Of a stretch of 21,286 bases of DNA, positions 1,789-20,959 are shown piece by piece; position 1 is the first letter of the stretch; each line of letters starts with the position of its first letter. Origin of the DNA: a virus; the IMG/VR virus record IMGVR_UViG_3300007276_000375, positions 1-21,286 of that record; one strand, written 5' to 3'. A model generated the notes under the pieces. It was not told the origin of the DNA, did no database searches, and worked only from the letters and a program-made list of their open reading frames with translations. The translations under genes were made by a program, and so were the position numbers.

Positions 1789-2505
1789 CTAACCAAAAAT
1801 AAGGCTGAAGGCTACGGCCTTGCCTGTTGTTGCTCTTTCTGAAAACGACAGGGTGCCTGACCCATTCGTCACCAAAGTTTCATTCGCGGACCCGTCACTG
1901 GTAGGTAGGGTAAATGCCGCCACAAACGCTTGCAAGTTTGCATCATACGCCAGAACATCTGTGCCAATCACCACGCCAAGATTTGTCCGTGCCGCAGCGG
2001 CTGTCCCTGCGCCAGTCCCTCCGTCTGCAATTGCAAGATCCGTGATCCCAGTTACACTGCCCCCGGTTATGGACACATTGCCCATCGCAAAGTTGGTTGT
2101 AAGGTCACTGACCGCGGCCCCTGCACCCGCTCCATCGGCATAGATAATTTTGGACTGACCATTTGGAACGGTGACGTTACTACCAGAGCCTTGCGAAAAC
2201 ACCGCAGACTGCCCAGAGTTATTGTAAACAAAGTAAACATGCTGACCAGTGTTCGGATCAATAGTAATGGTGTTAGTCCCAGAAGGTGACCCCGCCAAAA
2301 TAAGCACTTTGTACTGACCCGGGGACAGAGATCCATCGTTTGTGCTTAACGTATGCGTAGTACCCGCAAGAGAAATAGTACCAACGCCGTTAGTCAAACG
2401 GTCTATGATGTTCAAGTTTGTGTTAGTGATCGTGCCCCATGTACCCGACTTTTCGCCGTTACGAATAAGCTCTATACCACTGTTATCTGCGTATGTACTA
2501 GGCAT
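1789..2505 (-). CDS. Short tail-fibre protein, 238 aa
   Basis: A complete gene with AGGAAAG before its ATG. Residues 6-40 (ADNSGIELIRNGEKSGTWG, then TNTNLNIID) match the G-x-WG-x-x-TNxN attachment motif common at the N-terminus of marine phage fibres. Residues 60-130 form a beta domain (VYFVYNNSGQSAVF, then a PNGQSKIIYADGAG turn). Residues 157-179 are a classic fibre repeat, LAIADGGTGAGTAAAARTNL. The C-terminus (198-222) is an FTLPTSDG...LVTNGSGTLSFS linker also found twice in the 958-aa fibre of this phage. It is probably a trimeric fibre or fibre adaptor mounted on the hub encoded next to it. It ends shortly after the linker, so it may lack a receptor-binding tip of its own, or be truncated from a longer fibre. 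Confidence 0.85.
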   Translation of the reverse strand: MPSTYADNSGIELIRNGEKSGTWGTITNTNLNIIDRLTNGVGTISLAGTTHTLSTNDGSLSPGQYKVLILAGSPSGTNTITIDPNTGQHVYFVYNNSGQSAVFSQGSGSNVTVPNGQSKIIYADGAGAGAAVSDLTTNFAMGNVSITGGSVTGITDLAIADGGTGAGTAAAARTNLGVVIGTDVLAYDANLQAFVAAFTLPTSDGSANETLVTNGSGTLSFSERATTGKAVAFSLIFG

Positions 2506-2513
2506 CTACTTTC

Positions 2514-3212
2514 CTATGCAGCTATGATTTCTGTCCAGATCGTATTGTCGTCTGGTATAATTCTGCCCCAAACTAGCACGTTTCCAGTTTGACCGCTACC
2601 CGCAACTCCAGTAACGGAAACCGCAGCGTTACCCGTGATTGTTGGATCCCCGACCTCGCCCTGCGCAGGGGCCACCGCGCCAATAGGAATAACGCTGTTG
2701 ATCCGGATAGTTGGTGAACCAACCGCCCCTGTTCCCGCTATACCCACGACCGGAACTATCTGGTCTGTTTTGACTGTGACGCCGCCAACGCCGCCTGTGG
2801 CTTCAAGTCCAGTAACAGGAACAGACGCCGCCCCTTCGATGGTTACTGACCCAACGCCACCTGTCGCAGCAATCCCAACAACTGAGATGACTTGATCTGT
2901 AACCAAGGTAACAGAACCAACTTCCCCTGTTGCCGACACCCCTGTAACAGGAATGCTATGACCTGTCTTAACGGTAACACCATTTACGGCGGTTGTCGCC
3001 TCAAGACCCGTGACCGGAACTTGCGCTTCCCCTGTAATGCTAACAGAGCCAACGCCACCTGTCGCGGCAACTCCTGTTACCGAAATGATTTGATCTGTAA
3101 CTAAAGTAACTGAGCCTACATTACCCGTCGCAACTAAACCTGAGACAGGAATAAAGGTTGTTGAATCCTCCGCCGCTAACGGAGCCGTCGTTAGTGGGGA
3201 GAATCCAAGCAT
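2514..3212 (-). CDS. 22-residue tandem-repeat tail protein, 232 aa
   Basis: After a short N-terminal region (MLGFSPLTTAPL) the protein consists of about nine tandem copies of a 22-residue unit close to PVTGVAATGGVGSVTV. A C-terminal cap (WGRIIPDDNTIWTEI) follows. Units 1-3 and 4-6 are more alike as triplets than as neighbours, so a 66-residue super-repeat has been duplicated. Proteins with V-x-G-x-x-A-x-G-x-V-G-x-V repeats and a similar W-x-x-I-x-P-D-x-x-x-x-W cap occur in marine phage tail regions. They are thought to be structural, forming a repetitive beta rod. The attachment partner is unknown. The gene lies between two small genes and the short fibre, as expected for a tail appendage. 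Confidence 0.85.
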   Translation of the reverse strand: MLGFSPLTTAPLAAEDSTTFIPVSGLVATGNVGSVTLVTDQIISVTGVAATGGVGSVSITGEAQVPVTGLEATTAVNGVTVKTGHSIPVTGVSATGEVGSVTLVTDQVISVVGIAATGGVGSVTIEGAASVPVTGLEATGGVGGVTVKTDQIVPVVGIAGTGAVGSPTIRINSVIPIGAVAPAQGEVGDPTITGNAAVSVTGVAGSGQTGNVLVWGRIIPDDNTIWTEIIAA

Positions 3213-3216
3213 TTAC

Positions 3217-3453
3217 TTACCCTGCAATAGCAGCTTTACCCGCTGTAACAGCGGCGTTGAGCGGAGCCATGTCTTCACTGCCCCAATGCTCGTAGCTAAC
3301 CATAGCTTCTACATGGTCAACGTTACGTTGAAGCACTGTGGGGTCATCAGTGTAATCATCAGGCGCAGCAATAACTGCATTGATTAAGTTTACGCTATCC
3401 ATACATGCGCTGTAGTGCTGTGCGATTTCTTCTGTTGTAGGTGTATCAGGCAT
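3217..3453 (-). CDS. Small acidic protein of unknown function, 78 aa
   Basis: The start codon overlaps the stop of the 74-aa gene (TAATG), so the two are probably translated together. The sequence is acidic and mostly helical, with MDSVNLINAVI followed by DDYTDDPTVLQRNVDHVEAM. It has no signal peptide, no membrane segment and no cysteine cluster (one Cys near residue 17). I do not recognise a characterised family. The position between a fibre and a tail repeat protein suggests a fibre assembly accessory or a small virion part, but that is inference from context only. Confidence 0.7.
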   Translation of the reverse strand: MPDTPTTEEIAQHYSACMDSVNLINAVIAAPDDYTDDPTVLQRNVDHVEAMVSYEHWGSEDMAPLNAAVTAGKAAIAG

Positions 3454-3685: not shown

Positions 3686-6600
3686 TTATGAGTTTATTTG
3701 AGCTTCAAGCTCACTTACTTTAGCAGACAAATCTTTAATCGCCTGCACTAACACTGGAACCAACTTACCATAAGCAGCCTCCAGTCGTTCTGGGTTGTCA
3801 TCACTGACTAGACCCGGAATTTCTACACCTGTGTCTTGCTGTACTTGTTGCAAATCTTGCGCAATAAATCCAGTTTCTTTTATGCCTACCTTACCACCAT
3901 CACGCATGTTCCAAGTAAACGATACCGGATCAAGGCGCTCAACAAAATCAAGCCCAGCTTCAAGTGATTGTATATCTGTTTTGTCACGTTTATCTGATAG
4001 TGCTGTAATGGATGTGACTTGACAACGAAGTGTAGCAATAGAAGAGTTACCAAGAGTAATCTCGTTGGAGACTGTTGCGGATGATGCGTCCGCCGACTTT
4101 CCAATTACGGTGTTGTTAGTTCCAGAAGTAACATTATCGCCTGCATAAGCACCGATAAAAGTATTGTCATTCCCCGTATTGGCGTTACCTGCGCCGCTAC
4201 CTAATGCAGTAGTACGAGAAAAATTATTAAACGAGTTACCTGCTAATGCGCCTTGTCCAAAAGCTGAGTTATCAGTTCCTGTACCTTGACGCCGTAAAGC
4301 ATAAGTTCCAACCGCAGTATTGTTGTCTCCCGTAGAGGAAGAATTTGCTTCGTAACCAACCCCAGTATTATATGATGCTGTAGTAATACTTTGTACAGCA
4401 CTTGTACCAACAGCTACGTTGTATGTTCCTGTGGTAAGTAGCTTTGCCGCTCCCTGACCGACAGCAACGTTATTATGACCCGATGTCACATCGTGTAAGG
4501 TGCTGTGTCCTACGGCTGTGTTGTAATTACCAGTAACACCCGCGCTACCTTGCATACTGTCTGAGCCAAGGGAGATATTGTATTGACCAGTGGTTATATC
4601 TCGACCCGCACGGTAGCCCAACATGGTGTTGTACGACCCCGAGGTAAGATCATAACCAGTTTCTAGCCCGAAAGCCGCATTACTAGAGCCCGTTGTTATG
4701 TTGTATAAAGAATACCAACCTACAGCAGCATTTGTACCACCTGACGTTAGTGTTCTCGAAGAGTATGTACCAATAGAAATATTGTTGCTGCCAGTAACAC
4801 CGGCGGTTTGTGACATTGCCCTTTCGCCAATAGCAATGTTGCTTGTGCCTGTGGTAATATCTTCCCCAGCAAGATAACCAAGAGAAATATTTTTATCACC
4901 TGTGGTAATATTTCTTGCTGTAAGATAACCAATAGCAATGTTGTAATTAGAACCACTTTCTGAAGTTGAAGATGCCCCTGCACTTTGTCCAATATATACG
5001 TTAGCCGTACCAGTAATAACCTCTTTACCAGCACTATCACCTATAAAGACATTATGTTCTCCAGTAGTAATAGCATGACCTGCTTCATAACCTAAAGCTG
5101 TATTTGATGTTCCACTTGTTAATGCACGAAGGGTGTGGTATCCCATACCAATGTTGTCACCAGCAGTAGACGTTACTACACCACTGCCCATAGACTGATA
5201 ACCCATAGCTATATTTCGAGTGCCTGTAGTGGCATTTACACCCGCTTGATACCCTAAATAAATATTACTACTACCTGAAGTCGTATTTGTACCAGCTTCC
5301 GAACCTATAAAAAAGTTATGTGATCCTGAAGTAAGGTCTTGACCTGATGACTGTCCTGAAGCAAAGTTGTTACCGCCTGTAATTCCATCACTAGCATTTC
5401 CTGCTCTATAACCTAAGAAAACGTTATACGCACCTGTAGTAATAGCCTTACCAGCCTCTTGGCCCATAACAACGTTTTGCGTACCTGTAGTAATAGCATT
5501 TCCAGCGTCACGACCAATGGCAATGTTGTTAGTACCTGTGGTAACATTTCTAGCAGCATTTCTAGCAATAGCTACGTTGTCGGTTCCTGATGTTAAATCC
5601 TCAAGAGCCTGTTGCCCAAGTGCGTAGTTATCATCTCCAGTGACATTGCCGTTGGCACCTTGCATAGCAAGATAACCAATAGCTACGTTCCGCTCACCCG
5701 TGGTGATGCCGTACCCCGCCAAATGTCCAAGTGCTGTATTATGATCTCCTGAAACAAAATACAGAGTACGATAACCAACACCTGTATTACTGTTCGTAGT
5801 GGTGGGACTATAAATAGATTGATAACCAAGCGCTACGTTGTAGGAACCTGTAGTAAGTTTAGCCCCCGCTTCATAACCTGATGCGAGATTAAAATCTCCG
5901 GTGTTTACATCATTACCTGCTTGTTGGCCTAGAAGTGTGTTGTAAGTAGCTCCACTTTGCAGGGCTGCACCCGCACCAGTACCACCGATAAAGTTACCCG
6001 TGCCAACGTTACTTGAAGCACCACCCCCCGCATCCGCTAAGTCAATAAGACCCGTAGATGAGTTGTACGTTAGTACCTGACCGTCCGTAGCTCCGTTTTG
6101 AAGCCCCGGTAAACGGAAGCGGGAAGCACTTGTGTTACCAATGGTAATCTCGTTGGACACTGTTGCACTAGAAGCGGCTGCATTGTAGCCAATAATAGTG
6201 TTGTTGGAGCCTGTAGTAATAGCATCGCCAGCGGCTCTGCCTACTGCGGTGTTGTTAGAACCAGTAGTATAATTCTCTAAAGTCTGTGGGCCAAGAGCTA
6301 CGTTACTACTACCTGTGCTTCCGCTTGATACACCTTCTAGTGCTTGATAGCCAAGGGCAGCGTTGTAACCTGCTGTGGTATTATACCTACCTGCATTCCC
6401 TCCAACAAAAGTATTTTCAGCGCCAGTAGTGGTGGTCTTCCCTGCCTCGGCCCCAATACCAACATTGTTGCTAGCTGTTGTAGCGTTAAATAAAGCCAAC
6501 CATCCAGAAGAAACGTTATACGCACCTGTAGTGAGGTAGTAAGAAGCCTGATACCCAACAGCGGTGTTAGAAGCGCCAGTTGTCGCCGTAGTTAATGCCC

Positions 6601-8350
6601 TGTGACCAATACCTATATTATTTCCACCTGATGCACTAGAGCCACTACCAGAAAGATAACCCATAAATATGTTGCTACTGCCGCTTACTCTTGACTCTGC
6701 TGTATTGTGACCAACAAAAACATTCCACTGGCCTGATGTCATTGAGAAACCAACATTCGCCCCAACACCTACTGATTCAACCATGCCGCCAGTACCGGTG
6801 AAAGCATAATTACCAATAGCTACAAACTGATTTGTACCTGTGTAAGCTCCTCCAGCCTCACGACCAATAGCAACCGCAGAGCTACCTGTAGTCCGAGCGT
6901 CTAGTGCGTTATAGCCAATCGCTACGTTGTAGGAACCTGTAGTAATAGCCTTTAATGTTCTATATCCAATTGCAGTGTTACTAGTTCCAGTAGTAAATGC
7001 TTCCATAGCCTTTTCGCCTACAGCAGTATTATCACCCCCAGTTGATGAACCACTTACGCCTTCACCCGCACTATAACCCGTGAAAGTATTTGAAGCACCA
7101 GTGGCATATCGACCTGCATAAACTCCAAGACCCGTACTTTGTGAGTTAGTAGTATTTTTCGATAGTGCCTCTCTACCAACAGCAGCATTAAAAGTACCTG
7201 TAGTGTTGTCATTTAGTGCTTCATGACCGATTGCTACGTTACTTGCTGCGGTGGTGGTGTTTTGAAGAGCAAAATTACCAAGGGCTGTATTGTCAGTACC
7301 AGAGCTTATTCCATAACCAGCCTGTGCACCAATGCCTATATTGTTACCACCCGAAGTTAAGCTATAAAGAGCTTGTAATCCAATTGCTATAGTGTCAGTA
7401 CTTGTAGAACCACCAGTACCACCTTTACCTGCCTGTTGCCCAATACCAATATGACGAGCACCAGTTACAGTATTTTCACCAGCACCAAAACCAAGGTAAA
7501 CGTTGTGTGATGCCGTAGTTATATTCTTTCCAGCCTCTTCGCCAACAGCAATATTATTCTGGGCTGTAGTCACGTCTTCTAGTGCTTGTTTACCTATTGC
7601 AACATTATTAATACCTGTCGTAATACTTGTACCAGCAGTTTGACCAATAGCAATGTTGGAATTGCCCGTAGTAACCTTGCGGGCGGCATAATAGCCAAGG
7701 GCTATATTATAACCCCCAGTTGTTGATGCACTGCCTGAGTCCACCGACCTGCCTGCTTCATGTCCAATAGCGATTGTGTAATCACCTTCATTATATTGGG
7801 CAGATTGATAACCTATAGCAACTTTTTGAACGCCCCCCGTAGCTTCAGCACCAGAAAGATTGCCGATGTGGATACCGCCATTCACAGTAGTGTAATCTTT
7901 ACCCGCTTGATAACCGATATAAACAAACTCGTCTGCCGTGGTGTTGTTCATCCCTGCGTAAGTGCCTATTGCTACTGCGCTATTAGCACCAGCAGAGTTT
8001 TTCATCGCTTGGTGTCCTATTGCCACATTAGCTTGCATATAGGATGTATGTGAACCGTATAGAGACTGATAACCAATCGCTATATTCTTTTCGCCAATAG
8101 TATTTCTTGACCCTGCATCATAACCAACGTGAACGTTGTAATCTCCCGTGGTTAAGTCATTACCCGCCTCTTGGCCCAACAAGGTATTATACTGACCACC
8201 ACTTTGAAGCGCAGCGCCAGCACCAGTACCACCGATAAAGTTGCCCGTACCTGTGTTACTTGAAGCACCCCCCGCCGCTGCGCCATCAATGGTTAGAGAA
8301 CCGCTTGTAGCGGATATGTCGTTCGTTTGGTGGTTGATGGTTATAGACAT
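3686..8350 (-). CDS. Giant trimeric fibre with AIG repeats and self-cleaving S74 chaperone domain, 1554 aa
   Basis: A very long receptor-binding fibre. Residues 1-30 are a short attachment region. Residues about 37-1435 are tandem repeats of the type NVAIGYNAL...TTGSS, mostly 17 residues (51 bp) apart with some longer insertions, on the order of 70 copies. They resemble the beta-roll repeats of YadA/Hep_Hag heads. The shaft is two large copies: NFIGGTGAG at residues 37-45 recurs 749 residues later, and SSATVSNEIT occurs at about 735 and again at about 1430. Residues 1450-1554 are a peptidase S74 intramolecular chaperone. The SDKRDK motif gives the Ser1452/Lys1457 dyad of the family, GFIAQDLQ follows, and the end is a coiled coil. 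In this family the domain trimerises the fibre and then cuts itself off just before the serine, so the mature fibre would end near residue 1451. A ribosome binding site (AAAGGA) precedes the ATG. Confidence 0.93.
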   Translation of the reverse strand: MSITINHQTNDISATSGSLTIDGAAAGGASSNTGTGNFIGGTGAGAALQSGGQYNTLLGQEAGNDLTTGDYNVHVGYDAGSRNTIGEKNIAIGYQSLYGSHTSYMQANVAIGHQAMKNSAGANSAVAIGTYAGMNNTTADEFVYIGYQAGKDYTTVNGGIHIGNLSGAEATGGVQKVAIGYQSAQYNEGDYTIAIGHEAGRSVDSGSASTTGGYNIALGYYAARKVTTGNSNIAIGQTAGTSITTGINNVAIGKQALEDVTTAQNNIAVGEEAGKNITTASHNVYLGFGAGENTVTGARHIGIGQQAGKGGTGGSTSTDTIAIGLQALYSLTSGGNNIGIGAQAGYGISSGTDNTALGNFALQNTTTAASNVAIGHEALNDNTTGTFNAAVGREALSKNTTNSQSTGLGVYAGRYATGASNTFTGYSAGEGVSGSSTGGDNTAVGEKAMEAFTTGTSNTAIGYRTLKAITTGSYNVAIGYNALDARTTGSSAVAIGREAGGAYTGTNQFVAIGNYAFTGTGGMVESVGVGANVGFSMTSGQWNVFVGHNTAESRVSGSSNIFMGYLSGSGSSASGGNNIGIGHRALTTATTGASNTAVGYQASYYLTTGAYNVSSGWLALFNATTASNNVGIGAEAGKTTTTGAENTFVGGNAGRYNTTAGYNAALGYQALEGVSSGSTGSSNVALGPQTLENYTTGSNNTAVGRAAGDAITTGSNNTIIGYNAAASSATVSNEITIGNTSASRFRLPGLQNGATDGQVLTYNSSTGLIDLADAGGGASSNVGTGNFIGGTGAGAALQSGATYNTLLGQQAGNDVNTGDFNLASGYEAGAKLTTGSYNVALGYQSIYSPTTTNSNTGVGYRTLYFVSGDHNTALGHLAGYGITTGERNVAIGYLAMQGANGNVTGDDNYALGQQALEDLTSGTDNVAIARNAARNVTTGTNNIAIGRDAGNAITTGTQNVVMGQEAGKAITTGAYNVFLGYRAGNASDGITGGNNFASGQSSGQDLTSGSHNFFIGSEAGTNTTSGSSNIYLGYQAGVNATTGTRNIAMGYQSMGSGVVTSTAGDNIGMGYHTLRALTSGTSNTALGYEAGHAITTGEHNVFIGDSAGKEVITGTANVYIGQSAGASSTSESGSNYNIAIGYLTARNITTGDKNISLGYLAGEDITTGTSNIAIGERAMSQTAGVTGSNNISIGTYSSRTLTSGGTNAAVGWYSLYNITTGSSNAAFGLETGYDLTSGSYNTMLGYRAGRDITTGQYNISLGSDSMQGSAGVTGNYNTAVGHSTLHDVTSGHNNVAVGQGAAKLLTTGTYNVAVGTSAVQSITTASYNTGVGYEANSSSTGDNNTAVGTYALRRQGTGTDNSAFGQGALAGNSFNNFSRTTALGSGAGNANTGNDNTFIGAYAGDNVTSGTNNTVIGKSADASSATVSNEITLGNSSIATLRCQVTSITALSDKRDKTDIQSLEAGLDFVERLDPVSFTWNMRDGGKVGIKETGFIAQDLQQVQQDTGVEIPGLVSDDNPERLEAAYGKLVPVLVQAIKDLSAKVSELEAQINS

Positions 8351-8686: not shown

Positions 8687-11563
8687 TTAGGCGTATGTAA
8701 GTTCAGATGTGTGAATTGTAGCCACCCACCTGATGTTAGTTGATGCTGCACCAGTTACTTCTATTTTAAGACAGCCATTTGTGGTGTCAGCGGATAGTGC
8801 CATGCCCCAATTATATGTATTATCTATAATTGTAGTTGCGCTATTTACTAAGACTGTTGTGCCAGCAGAGCCTTCTCTGCGAATTAAACCTTCAACTTTC
8901 CATGCTGCACATTCAGTACCTTCTGATGCTTTTTCTCTTGCTACAATAGTGCCGTGGAATGAATAAGCAGAGTTGTTTTGTAAGTTTACTTGATTAGTTG
9001 CTGATGCAGAAGTTCCTGTAGACGTAAGAGCTATGGCTGTTGCATTTGTGGTAGATACGTGTAAAACATATTTACCTTGTTGTGCATCGCCAGCACCATT
9101 TATATAATCATTAGCAAAAGCGTATTTACCAATTATACCGCCTACTCTTGCGTAAGCACCAATCGCAACACTGCTACTAGCATTTGCTGTAACATTTCTA
9201 CCAATTGCTAAACTATCACTACCTGAACTACTTGCTTCATGGCCTATAGATACTGAACTTGATCCTGATCCACCCAGACCTGCTTCTCTACCTATTGCAA
9301 CAGTAGAGTGATTAGAGGATCTTGCGTTATAACCAATAGAAACACCATAGTCACTACCAGTAGCTTGAGCAGAGCCAATAGCTACAGCATAATTACCCGT
9401 AGATTTTGACTGATAGCCCATCGCAATACTGCTAGTACCAGTTGCACCGTAGGATGAACTGTTGGTAGCGATGGCGGCTGCGAAGCTGTTAGTGCCAGAA
9501 GCATAAGAGCCACCAAGAGCCATTGCGCCCATATTAGAGCCACCAACTGTTGCTAGGTGAGCGCTACTGTTCAAGCCAATGGCAGTTGAGTAATGATTGT
9601 TAGTGGTTGTGCTACCCATGATAGCAATTGTAGAATTTGCCCTAGATAGGCTGACATTGCCGCCGCCAACATTTCTGCCGATTGCCAATGCGCCGTTACC
9701 TGATGCCGTACCACCCTGTACCGCAAAACTATCCGTACCACTTGCGGTTGGTGCTTCACCAATGGCTATTGCATTAGCCCCAGTCGCAGAAGGTTGTGCT
9801 GAAGGAGAGCTTTCATTAGCAGCATAAAGCGCAGCGCCAACTGTGGCGAATGAAAGTGCGCCAGAGCCATTTGTAACAAGCGCAGTCCCTGATGAACCAT
9901 CGGCTGTAGGTAGGGTGTAGGCTCCAGATACTCTAACCGCATAGCCTGAAGCACCTAAAGCAACCTGATTCGTTGCGCTTGTTGCTGCATTGTAACCAAC
10001 AGCAGTTGCATTCGCATGTGTTGCTTGAGCGCCGTTACCTAAAGCAGTTGACCTAGTGGCGGTAGCATCTGTACTTGAACCTCCTGCAAAACTGTCTTGG
10101 CCAGAAGCTACAGCATTATAACCGTATGCGGCTGATTGATAGCCACTAGCTATAGAACTTTGACCAATAGATGCTGCACTGTTATTTGTAGCTCTAGCTT
10201 GAGTACCAAACGCTACGGAGTTTACACCAGTTGTGCCATAAGAGCTTGAGTTATTAACTATACTCCCAGCAATACTACTAGCCGCACCAGCACGAGAGTT
10301 ACCTATAGCTATAGCTTCGCTTGAACCAACCGCTTGCGCATTGTAACCTAACGCTGTTGCAGAGGTAGCAGTAGCATCTGTGCCAGAACCTATTGCTGTT
10401 GCATGTGGGCCTGAAGCTACAGCCAAAGCGCCAACGGCTGTTGCCGACTGACCCGCCGCTCCCGCGGCGGCATAATAACCTAGCGCAAGAACGTTTTGAT
10501 TGTTTCCAGCAGTTGCGCCAGTGCCAATCGCAATTTTATCATTATTCCCAGTAGCTGACCCTGCTACTGCGGCACTACCTATAGCAATACTGTTGTTACC
10601 ATTTACTACAGGATCAGTGGCACTTACAGGATTAGCAGCATAAAGATCAGCACCAACCGCAGAAAAAGACAACGCGCCCGAGCCATCTGTGACAAGCGCA
10701 GTCCCTGCCGCGCCGTCTGAGGTTGGCAGGGTATAAGCATCGAACAGCTTGATTGTATTCCCAGTGCCACCAATAGCTATTTGATTGTCTACGCTGGAAC
10801 TAATCGCCTTACCAATAACAATAGTATTTTCGCCAGAAGCCGTCGAAGCGTTTTGACCTATAGAAAAAGATTGTTCCCCATTGGCGCGGCTAAACCCTAG
10901 CGCTATTCCATATTGCCCTCCCGCAATAGCGGCGTATCCAATCGCAATAGCGTATGTGGCTTGTGCTCTGGATTGATACCCAAGAGTAACGGAGTTAGCC
11001 CCTGTCGATCCAAACGTCGCATCGTTGCGTGAGTTGTTCGCACTAAACGCTTCTAGCCCCGACGCATTAGAGCCACCAAGTGCTACAGCCCCGTTGCCCG
11101 AAGCTATCGCCCCCACATTGGTTCCCGTCGCCAACGCACCGATACCAACAGAACGGGTGCCCGAAGCTAACGCATCAAGGCCAATGGCTATCGCATCTGT
11201 GCCCGTGGCACTCGGACCATTAAAACTTGAAGTAGTTTGCGTAACAAAATTTGCGTCGTATAAAGGGCTTACGTCTTCCGCAGCCGCAGTAATAAAGACT
11301 TCCGCATTTCCGCTTAGAGAAATCGCAGAGCCACCACTGGAACTTTCACTCGGAGTTCGAGTTAATGTAGTGCCCGAGGTGGTATAAGTCCCAAGCCCAA
11401 TTTCCCAATTTACGCCATCTTGGATCGTATACCGCGTTATCGCCCCTGTGGTTAAACCCGCAGCGGTGAAACTTTGGTAGCCTGAAAGAGCAGAACCCAG
11501 AGTTATAGTACCAGCACCCGTGGTGCTGGTGGACATTTTTGCCCTGTTCTTTAAAACAGCCAT
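8687..11563 (-). CDS. Long YadA-head-like tail fibre with repeated modules, 958 aa
   Basis: The N-terminus (MAVLKNRAKMSTSTTGAGT, then about 80 residues with an RYTIQDG...WEIG motif) is the conserved virion attachment domain of many marine phage fibres. From about residue 100 to 808 the protein is made of AIG repeats (ATAIGSGTDATATSATALG type) like the left-handed beta-roll of YadA heads. They fall in three modules, each opening with LYxAN and an ATGxxAIAIG start, separated by two near-identical linkers (AYTLPTSDG...LVTxGSGALSF) at about residues 277-311 and 549-583, exactly 272 codons apart. Residues 808-958 form a separate C-terminal beta domain (KYAFANDYINGAGD to HTSELTYA) seen at the end of many marine phage fibres, presumably the tip. 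It has no S74 domain. The start was chosen for its match to the family. An internal ATG at residue 10 is a possible alternative, since the ribosome binding site is weak for both. Confidence 0.92.
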   Translation of the reverse strand: MAVLKNRAKMSTSTTGAGTITLGSALSGYQSFTAAGLTTGAITRYTIQDGVNWEIGLGTYTTSGTTLTRTPSESSSGGSAISLSGNAEVFITAAAEDVSPLYDANFVTQTTSSFNGPSATGTDAIAIGLDALASGTRSVGIGALATGTNVGAIASGNGAVALGGSNASGLEAFSANNSRNDATFGSTGANSVTLGYQSRAQATYAIAIGYAAIAGGQYGIALGFSRANGEQSFSIGQNASTASGENTIVIGKAISSSVDNQIAIGGTGNTIKLFDAYTLPTSDGAAGTALVTDGSGALSFSAVGADLYAANPVSATDPVVNGNNSIAIGSAAVAGSATGNNDKIAIGTGATAGNNQNVLALGYYAAAGAAGQSATAVGALAVASGPHATAIGSGTDATATSATALGYNAQAVGSSEAIAIGNSRAGAASSIAGSIVNNSSSYGTTGVNSVAFGTQARATNNSAASIGQSSIASGYQSAAYGYNAVASGQDSFAGGSSTDATATRSTALGNGAQATHANATAVGYNAATSATNQVALGASGYAVRVSGAYTLPTADGSSGTALVTNGSGALSFATVGAALYAANESSPSAQPSATGANAIAIGEAPTASGTDSFAVQGGTASGNGALAIGRNVGGGNVSLSRANSTIAIMGSTTTNNHYSTAIGLNSSAHLATVGGSNMGAMALGGSYASGTNSFAAAIATNSSSYGATGTSSIAMGYQSKSTGNYAVAIGSAQATGSDYGVSIGYNARSSNHSTVAIGREAGLGGSGSSSVSIGHEASSSGSDSLAIGRNVTANASSSVAIGAYARVGGIIGKYAFANDYINGAGDAQQGKYVLHVSTTNATAIALTSTGTSASATNQVNLQNNSAYSFHGTIVAREKASEGTECAAWKVEGLIRREGSAGTTVLVNSATTIIDNTYNWGMALSADTTNGCLKIEVTGAASTNIRWVATIHTSELTYA

Positions 11564-19539: not shown

Positions 19540-20030
19540 TAGTAGCACTTTCCACGTTTGGGGTTATCACGGACATCGGCAGCGCGAACTTCGCCCCCTG
19601 ATCTAAAGCTGCCCTTAAAGTTCTCAAGAGTTCCCTTACCATTTTTACGGGTACTAAACATGGGGGGTAACATTCTATTGGGCGGCGGTTTTCCAACAGG
19701 CAATTTCTTGGTGCCTAGTTTTTTAGACATGTTTCTTTTGTACGGCATTTGAAAGGTTTTTGTACCACCCATCGAAGTGGGCATGTCCGGATCGTTGGGT
19801 ATCTTTGGGGTCTTTGGAGCGACCTTACCACCGCGTCTATATTTTTCTTCATCCATGTCCTCAAAGATCTCCGGATTTTTACGCAGAAGTTTTTCTACCT
19901 CTTGCGACATAAATTGTTGTTTGCCAGCATTTAAACTTTTAGTGCCGCCCATAGCCTCATATGCAGACTCGCCTTCCATAAAACGACGTAGTTGCTCTTT
20001 CGTAAACGACTTCTTTTTCTTTTTAGCCAT
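19539..20030 (-). CDS. Basic Lys/Gly-rich protein, 163 aa
   Basis: Begins MAKKKKKSFTKEQLRRFMEG and overlaps the lysozyme gene by eight bases. It is strongly basic. After a helical start (SAYEAMGGTKSLNAGKQQFM, then KLLRKNPEIFEDMDEEKY) the rest is low in complexity (KVAPKTPKIPNDPDMP, then KLGTKKLPVGKPPPNR). The end is an R-rich tail, EVRAADVRDNPKRGKCY. The tail resembles that of the 68-aa basic protein at 13967-14173, whose end is GRGVRDTKMV, and both contain GG-K/M elements. Small proteins with such ends are frequent in marine phages. It may bind DNA or RNA. No known enzyme motif is visible. Confidence 0.75.
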   Translation of the reverse strand: MAKKKKKSFTKEQLRRFMEGESAYEAMGGTKSLNAGKQQFMSQEVEKLLRKNPEIFEDMDEEKYRRGGKVAPKTPKIPNDPDMPTSMGGTKTFQMPYKRNMSKKLGTKKLPVGKPPPNRMLPPMFSTRKNGKGTLENFKGSFRSGGEVRAADVRDNPKRGKCY

Positions 20031-20568
20031 CTAAAAGCTCCAGTGCTTTCTCAAGAGTTTCTTTGTTACGACGAGACCAACCTTTGCCGTATACCGCATA
20101 GTCTTTTAGAGAGCGGTAAAAACCTTCACGCCCGTCGTAGTATTTGTGCAAGATGTCTTTTGGATCGAAGTCATGCACTGCTGCTACGGTCTTTGGGCCA
20201 ATGGCCCCATCTGCGGTCGCCCCGACCACGCGCTGTAATATTTTAGCTGCACGTCCCGGCCCGGCATTCACACAAAGGTCCACGCAACTAACGTCAACGC
20301 CCGAAGGGAGATCGTCCCCCTTGACCGCATCCCAGTAGTTTTTCTTGTACAAAGGTTTCACATCGTCTTTCGTCAGCTTACGCATAACGTCTTTCGGGGC
20401 AGGCTTGCCAGTGTATCGCGCCCAGTTGTACGCCGTAACACCCAGCATGGTACTGCCATCATTTCCGTGACCATCACCTTTTTTGTTTCCAGAATCCCTA
20501 GTGTCATCCGTAAATCCACCTTCGTGATGAATCAGCATTTCAAAAAACGCTTCCCAGTTCTTTTTCAT
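20023..20568 (-). CDS. GH108-type N-acetylmuramidase endolysin, 181 aa
   Basis: The start is the ATG at 20568, preceded by AAGGAAG. A longer in-frame reading from 20688 lies inside the holin gene and was rejected. The start (FFEMLIHHEGGFTDD) holds the catalytic Glu16 of the EGG(Y/F) motif of GH108 muramidases, and a GSTMLGVTAYNW segment follows, as in that family. Residues 90-130 (SCVDLCVNAGPGRAAKILQ, then DGAIGPKTVAAV) are a peptidoglycan-binding PG_binding_3 type domain. The enzyme would cut the glycan strands of the host wall. It has no signal peptide, so it needs the holin encoded just upstream. The end overlaps the next gene by eight bases. Confidence 0.92.
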   Translation of the reverse strand: MKKNWEAFFEMLIHHEGGFTDDTRDSGNKKGDGHGNDGSTMLGVTAYNWARYTGKPAPKDVMRKLTKDDVKPLYKKNYWDAVKGDDLPSGVDVSCVDLCVNAGPGRAAKILQRVVGATADGAIGPKTVAAVHDFDPKDILHKYYDGREGFYRSLKDYAVYGKGWSRRNKETLEKALELLDG

Positions 20569-20569
20569 G

Positions 20570-20959
20570 TCACTTCCTTTTAAAAAATGATTGCGCCCCG
20601 CGCACACCAAAACTGGCTGAAATTGCAATTCCAAGGCTATAAAAATACCAGTCCGGTGCCTTGTTAAGCTGCTCAAACCCACGATCAACCCAACCTTCCG
20701 CGCCCGGAATCCAACATAAAATCAAGGGGATAGACAAGATAATTACAAAATATTCGTCCTTCCAGCTTGTTTTTGCGCCTTCAGCCATGACTCGTTCCCA
20801 GTCGGCAACGCTTGTTTCTTTTGACAATAATATCTGGGCCTTCGCCTTCGCCTCGGTTAACTTTAGCTCCGCCTCTGCGGACTGTTTATCTGCTTTGCCT
20901 TGTAGCCAACTACCCGCAAGATTTGCTAACGGCCCTAATGCAGCGGTAAAAATACTCAT
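20570..20959 (-). CDS. Holin of the gene-transfer-agent 3TM type, 129 aa
   Basis: Starts on the overlap ATGA with the small membrane gene and ends one base before the endolysin gene. Residues 1-18 form an amphipathic or hydrophobic segment (FTAALGPLANLAGSWLQG). Residues 24-45 are a charged helix, and two clear membrane helices lie at about 70-85 (YFVIILSIPLILCWIPG) and 104-120 (WYFYSLGIAISASFGVRG). The ADWERVMAEGAKTSWKDEY segment before the first helix is diagnostic for this holin type, known from gene-transfer-agent release. It would open the inner membrane for the endolysin. A basic end (FFKRK) supports a cytoplasmic C-terminus. Confidence 0.88.
   Translation of the reverse strand: MSIFTAALGPLANLAGSWLQGKADKQSAEAELKLTEAKAKAQILLSKETSVADWERVMAEGAKTSWKDEYFVIILSIPLILCWIPGAEGWVDRGFEQLNKAPDWYFYSLGIAISASFGVRGAQSFFKRK

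What the first reader, a model, noticed from the sequence alone, without database searches (positions are those of the whole stretch)
3686..8350. Giant fibre is an in-frame duplication of a whole fibre unit, with the chaperone kept only at the end
The 23-base string gcaccagtaccaccgata + aagtt occurs at 8220-8242 and again at 5973-5995, exactly 2247 bases (749 codons) apart, each time encoding the same NFIGGTGAG region that opens a shaft. The shaft end (SSATVSNEIT) also occurs twice, at 6134-6166 and 4046-4078, 2088 bases (696 codons) apart. The layout is start, about 700 residues of repeats, end motif; then start, repeats, end motif, S74 domain. The simplest reading is that a complete fibre gene was fused to a second copy, losing the first chaperone. 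The mature trimer would be unusually long. The two halves also differ in repeat number, so 51-base repeats were gained or lost afterwards.
Basis: partly seen in the sequence, partly recalled or inferred. Interest (0 to 1): 0.72.

Follow-up and report, generated by a model that had tools for sequence, protein, structure and literature searches.

The report
Two-segment phage fibre, a recombination mosaic
A long tail fibre of a marine virus of bacteria is built of two shaft segments that look like a doubled gene, but comparison with relatives shows the segments are not copies of each other: they are interchangeable pieces that such viruses trade between fibre genes, cutting in the same conserved end pieces.

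Summary
The 1554-aa ORF (3686-8350, minus strand) and its anatomy are real: anchor, opening cap, shaft, closing cap, linker, second opening cap, shaft, closing cap, S74 chaperone. The 23-mer 749 codons apart is exact. But the halves are not duplicates. Likeness is limited to about 80 residues at the start and 35-40 at the end; the repeats between are not collinear (z about -0.6; positive controls reach 8-9). The two opening caps are old paralogues (dS 1.5). The first 188 residues of segment 2 are 90% DNA-identical to the FIRST segment of another phage (L083; dS 0.2 in the shaft part), and L083's opening cap is itself a three-source mosaic. L003, 97-100% identical over most of the region from mid-S74 downstream, carries an unrelated second segment. 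L002 and L004 share the two-segment junction. Single-segment relatives with the same anchor and cap exist (L034). The closing-cap/linker junction recurs up to five times per fibre, often without any S74, so no chaperone need have been lost. Best reading: a modular, recombining shaft-segment system, a variant of known tail-fibre mosaicism.

The parts
8282..8350 (-). N-terminal anchor, aa 1-23 (MSITINHQTNDISATSGSLTIDG); present once only
   Evidence: aligned in four relatives; profile match; +2247 diagonal gives 6/30 and 9/30 here, so it is not duplicated
8135..8272 (-). opening cap 1, aa 27-72
   Evidence: profile openN; DNA identity to cap 2 76%, dS 1.48
6197..8134 (-). shaft of segment 1, aa 73-718, about 17-residue repeats
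   Evidence: repeat segmentation; distal part (aa 468 on) 83% DNA identity to L002
6122..6196 (-). closing cap 1, aa 719-743 (IIGYNAAASSATVSNEITIGNTSAS)
   Evidence: profile close
6026..6121 (-). linker, aa 744-775 (RFRLPGLQNGATDGQVLTYNSSTGLIDLADAG)
   Evidence: same linker in L002, L003, L004, L165, L166
5888..6025 (-). opening cap 2, aa 776-821
   Evidence: profile openN; groups with second caps of L002/L004, moderate support 85/92
5463..6025 (-). stretch 90.1% identical (564 nt) to the FIRST segment of L083
   Evidence: dS 0.20 over aa 830-963
4109..5887 (-). shaft of segment 2, aa 822-1414
   Evidence: repeat segmentation; not collinear with segment 1
4025..4108 (-). closing cap 2, aa 1415-1442
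   Evidence: profile close
3827..3997 (-). Peptidase_S74 / intramolecular chaperone, aa 1452-1508; Ser1452 and Lys1457 (i, i+5) invariant in nine fibres
   Evidence: Pfam PF13884 E 3e-14; alignment; dyad known from MyRF S587/K592 and endoNF S911/K916 (PMC8326128)
3689..3826 (-). C-terminal end after S74, aa 1509-1554, predicted mostly long helix, probably trimeric coiled coil
   Evidence: helix 231-263 in a low-confidence model

Best explanation
A two-segment homotrimeric tail fibre made by recombination. The N-terminal anchor fixes the fibre to the virion; each segment is an opening cap, a variable run of about 17-residue beta-repeats, and a closing cap; a 32-residue linker joins closing cap 1 to opening cap 2; S74 at the end registers the three chains and probably cuts itself off before Ser1452. 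Segments are exchanged between fibre genes of related marine phages by homologous recombination inside the protein-level conserved pieces (opening cap, S74), so a shaft can sit first in one phage and second in another. Shown by sequence: anatomy, lack of collinearity, shared junction, first-to-second position relation with L083 and of L003 with L010/L015, mosaic break-points in the opening cap and in S74. Inferred: trimer, self-cleavage, receptor binding by the variable shaft, and the recombination route.
For: Inner repeats of segments 1 and 2 not collinear (z -0.55, 271/400; z -0.69, 112/150), while the same test gives 8.8-9.4 for segment 1 vs L002 segment 1 and 7.8-8.4 for segment 2 vs L083 segment 1. 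Segment 2's front has 90.1% DNA identity to L083's first segment; dS 0.20 against 1.48 between the window's own caps. L083's cap changes source twice within about 120 nt. L003: 97-100% DNA identity over most of the stretch from mid-S74 to the window's end, with one 78-aa gene at 70-85%, and unalignable shaft upstream. L002/L004 share the junction (81-83%). L010 (two segments) and L015 (one) share 88% over the first 301 aa and 96% over the C-terminus, with a different middle. Closing-cap/linker junctions recur up to 5 times; 16 of 23 distinct proteins that have one show no S74, 10 of those 16 with complete ORFs. Single-segment relatives with the same anchor and cap: L034-L036.
Against: The joining event itself is not dated: a very old self-duplication whose repeats were later entirely replaced cannot be excluded, and the two opening caps are paralogous in any model. 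The direction of transfer between the window type and L083 is unknown. L083 ends at a contig end and L003 starts inside the fibre, so their full layouts are unknown. Contigs are metagenome assemblies; chimeras within repeats are possible, and an independent near-identical contig (L011/L082) covers only the first 775 nt of the gene. L002's two segments gave a weak signal (z 2.5-2.7).
Confidence: 0.8

Rival explanations
1. One reading: a complete fibre gene was duplicated in frame and fused to its own copy, the first copy losing its S74 chaperone; repeats were gained or lost afterwards.
For: Same opening cap and closing cap in both halves, exact 749-codon spacing of a 23-mer; whole-segment alignment including the caps is significant (z 4.5); neighbouring S74 fibre genes that could fuse exist in relatives; single-segment relatives exist.
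Against: Signal vanishes once the 4 first and 3 last repeats are dropped; anchor not duplicated; dS 1.48 between caps versus 0.20 to another phage's first segment; junction pieces iterate in S74-less fibres.
Confidence: 0.05
2. Ancient duplication of the caps or of a whole segment in a common ancestor of window, L002 and L004, followed by independent replacement of the shaft interiors by recombination. This shares the mosaic part of the best explanation and differs only in how the two-segment layout first arose.
For: Second caps of window, L002, L004 group together (85/92) and the junction region is 81-83% identical between them.
Against: L165 shows the same cap twice in a fibre with a different N-terminus and no S74, and L003 has the same linker in front of a different cap, so caps also move as free modules.
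Confidence: 0.12
3. Assembly artefact: two fibre genes or two strains joined within repeats.
For: Contigs L011 and L003 break inside this gene, as expected for strain-variable repeats.
Against: The same junction is found in independent assemblies L002, L004 and, up to the linker, L003; no exact repeat over 26 nt occurs in the gene, shorter than a read.
Confidence: 0.03

Closest known systems
Phage fibres and spikes with C-terminal S74 intramolecular chaperone (endosialidase, K5 lyase ElmA, T5 L-shaped tail fibre, GA-1 neck appendage gp12; cellular MyRF)
   Same: C-terminal S74 domain with Ser/Lys at i, i+5 and a helical C-terminal end
   Different: Shaft is a two-segment array of about 17-residue repeats with no PDB sequence relative; cleavage not tested
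YadA-like head domains of trimeric autotransporter adhesins (e.g. BoaA, 3s6l)
   Same: Predicted beta-solenoid shaft; BoaA head is top of the structural list, Z 9.8, 127 residues, 30% identity
   Different: Repeat is 17 rather than about 14 residues (the 14 is general knowledge); no Pfam YadA_head match even at E 10; general beta-solenoids score the same (9.7), rmsd 7.5, model confidence low
Tail-fibre domain mosaicism in phages (PMC10684548) and T4-type fibre exchange and duplications (Tetart 1996, Riede 1986, as cited in PMC9004378)
   Same: Modules swapped by recombination while ends are conserved
   Different: Here the exchanged pieces are whole shaft segments that change position along one fibre, delimited by repeated caps
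Marine phage repeat fibres with S74 or YadA domains (PMC3909814; isolates Venkman gp55, HTVC111P gp52)
   Same: Related repeat fibres; such genes are hypervariable in metagenomes
   Different: The isolate fibres checked carry at most one closing cap and no linker junction

Membership tests
Peptidase_S74 (PF13884) fibre | S74 domain above curated cut-off near the C-terminus | tested here: met
   53.4 bits vs cut-off 22, aa 1452-1508 of 1554
Peptidase_S74 (PF13884) fibre | Ser-Lys catalytic pair for self-cleavage | tested here: met
   Ser1452 and Lys1457 invariant in nine fibres; spacing as MyRF S587/K592 and endoNF S911/K916
Peptidase_S74 (PF13884) fibre | actual self-cleavage and trimer formation | not testable with these tools
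   needs expression
YadA-like head repeat protein | match to Pfam YadA_head PF05658 | tested here: not met
   no match at E up to 10; the neighbouring ORF 8687-11563 does match, E 2e-36
YadA-like head repeat protein | left-handed parallel beta-roll fold | tested here: inconclusive
   low-confidence monomer models; 3s6l Z 9.8 tied with other beta-solenoids; Foldseek no match under E 0.001
In-frame self-duplication of a fibre gene | repeats of the two halves collinear and mutually closest | tested here: not met
   z -0.55 and -0.69; controls 5.6-9.4
In-frame self-duplication of a fibre gene | single-unit relatives exist | tested here: met
   L034-L036, L015, L016, L019, L078
Recombining fibre mosaic | near-identical flanks with a replaced interior | tested here: met
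   L003 vs window, one flank visible; L002 vs L004 and L010 vs L015, both ends visible
HTVC023P-type podovirus | major capsid protein relative | tested here: met
   71% identity over 300 aa to the HTVC023P capsid protein; whole-genome placement not made, the window is a 21-kb fragment

The most novel reading that the evidence does not exclude
Opening caps and closing-cap/linker pieces form a general plug-and-play boundary set that lets marine phages chain, reorder and swap whole shaft segments along one fibre, with the caps serving both as folding boundaries and as standing recombination points; fibre length and specificity would evolve by moving segments between positions rather than by point mutation.
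Probability: 0.3. Interest if true: 0.55.

Novelty: new variant of a known kind. Interest (0 to 1): 0.36.

Why it matters
Tail fibres decide which cell a phage infects. Here one can see natural exchange of whole shaft segments, including first-to-second position moves, in uncultured marine phages, with break-points readable inside conserved end pieces. It also warns that matching start and end motifs in a repetitive fibre do not prove duplication.

Tried and rejected
PDB sequence search of the whole fibre: no match even at E 10; of the C-terminal 150 residues: none; a profile search gave one weak hit, a tail fibre in 8jov, E 0.03. Two AlphaFold2 monomer models were of low mean confidence (61.9 and 59.3); Foldseek found nothing under E 0.001. 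The structural second look does not separate YadA head from other beta-solenoids. A cap-only tree (138 nt) resolves little; the relevant forks have 85-89% support. The idea of a DNA-level recombination site was weakened: caps differ at many synonymous sites (dS 0.5-1.5), so the conservation is of the protein. A near-identity DNA search of phage isolates found only a 338-nt match to roseophage CRP-901. Searches failed for frame or term errors; one search failed on a program option (diagnosed) and was repeated.

Full report
Observation. The window is a 21,286-base virus contig, linear, probably a fragment. ORF 3686-8350 on the minus strand encodes 1554 aa. The only Pfam domain is Peptidase_S74 at aa 1452-1508. 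The layout as described is right: anchor, opening cap, about 40 repeats, closing cap, linker, opening cap, 37 repeats, closing cap, S74.

How far the halves match. On the +2247 diagonal DNA likeness runs from about codon 21 to codon 100 and then drops to chance; on the +2088 diagonal it covers about codons 704-740. The anchor (aa 1-20) has no counterpart in front of cap 2, where instead a linker stands. Units of the two halves average 46% DNA identity, no more than units within a half.

Units of 16 residues were aligned in order and the score compared with shuffled order. With caps included the halves match (z 4.5), but with the first four and last three units dropped they do not (z -0.55, 271 of 400 shuffles as good; repeated, z -0.69). 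The test has power: segment 1 against L002 segment 1 gives 8.8-9.4, segment 2 against L083 segment 1 gives 7.8-8.4, L002 against L004 second segments 5.6-5.8. In other two-segment fibres the halves are also not collinear (L004 0.1-0.2, L010 -0.6; L002 weakly, 2.5-2.7). So the repeats are not equivalents at +749.

Relatives. One scan with the whole protein and two with alignments of the N-terminus and of the junction gave 240 loci, some of them from the same contigs. Fibres with the same anchor come with one segment (L034-L036, L015, L016, L019, L078) and with two (L002, L004, L010). L002 and L004 share the window's junction at 81-83% DNA identity, up to codon 819. L003 shares it up to the linker and then has a different opening cap. 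L010 has two segments and L015 one, with 88% identity over the first 301 aa and 96% over the C-terminus: segments are gained or lost among near relatives.

Origin of segment 2. Codons 776-963, cap 2 and the repeats that follow, are 90.1% identical in DNA to codons 27-214 of L083, where they are the first segment directly behind the anchor. Synonymous divergence there is 0.20 in the shaft part, against 1.48 between the window's own two caps. L083's cap is a mosaic: nt 1-96 follow L002 (95 of 96), nt 121-168 follow the window's cap 1, and from nt 193 on it follows the window's segment 2. A second case of position exchange: L003's second segment is collinear with the first segments of L010 and L015 (z 4.7 and 4.0).

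A recent swap. L003 and the window are 97-100% identical over most of the stretch from the middle of S74 (about cds 4418) to window base 1, apart from the small gene at 3217-3453 (70-85%) and slightly lower bins beside it (92-95%); upstream of S74 identity decays and the shafts cannot be aligned. In that pair the S74 domain marks the cross-over. L002 and L004 are 96% identical at both ends with a replaced middle of segment 1.

No lost chaperone needed. Among 79 distinct fibres that carry a cap-linker or cap-S74 junction, 23 have a closing-cap/linker junction, up to five per protein by the census (six closing caps in L191), and 16 of these 23 show no S74, ten of them in complete ORFs. L165 has the same opening cap twice, another N-terminus and no S74. 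The closing cap plus linker is therefore a piece in its own right and not the scar of a lost S74.

How it most likely works. Shown by sequence are the domain order and the invariant Ser1452/Lys1457, equivalent in spacing to the dyad of MyRF and endoNF (PMC8326128). Inferred: three chains fold together, S74 sets the register and is cut off before Ser1452, leaving a mature chain of 1451 residues; each 17-residue repeat is one turn of a beta-solenoid; caps close each shaft section; the linker is a joint. Monomer models show a strand about every 17 residues with moderate confidence in the shaft, and the structural list is led by a YadA-like head, tied with other beta-solenoids. The fold is thus likely but not proven.

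Context. The major capsid protein is 71% identical to pelagiphage HTVC023P, 67% to phage DSL-LC04 and 57% to roseophage CRP-901. The host is unknown.

Novelty. Mosaicism of fibres is well described (PMC10684548), and marine phage fibres with repeats and S74 or YadA ends are known to be hypervariable (PMC3909814). In the papers searched no description of this segment grammar was found, but the search was limited.

Limits. Metagenome contigs, two of the key ones truncated in or near the fibre; hand-made module profiles; direction and date of the joining event open; an old cap or segment duplication before the swaps remains possible.

Noticed in passing
window 8687-11563 (-): The neighbouring 958-aa YadA-head protein has its own segment structure: two near-identical linkers (YTLPT[SA]DGxxGTALVT[DN]GSGALSF...VGAxLYAAN) 272 residues apart, separating three head sections.
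   Followed up: partly
window 1789-2505 (-): A third structural protein carries the same kind of LPTSDG...LVTNGSGTLSF linker near its C-terminus, so this linker type recurs in nearby genes.
   Followed up: no
window 3217-3453 (-) versus L003: A 78-aa gene is only 70-85% identical in DNA between two phages that are otherwise mostly 97-100% identical around it: another small exchange tract beside the fibre.
   Followed up: partly
L029, L038, L039, L040, L045, L046, L060, L064, L067: Two fibre genes, each with its own S74 domain, lie close together on the same strand.
   Followed up: no
L191 2277-7208, L138 1-6153: Fibres with four to five closing-cap/linker junctions and no S74; L138 ends in a YadA-like section with a C-terminus resembling that of the window's 958-aa protein.
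   Followed up: no
window 2514-3212 (-): 232-aa protein made of degenerate repeats (G[VL].ATG.VGSVT..), no Pfam or PHROGs match.
   Followed up: no
window 20023-20688 (-): Glycosyl hydrolase 108 with a peptidoglycan-binding domain, a likely endolysin.
   Followed up: no
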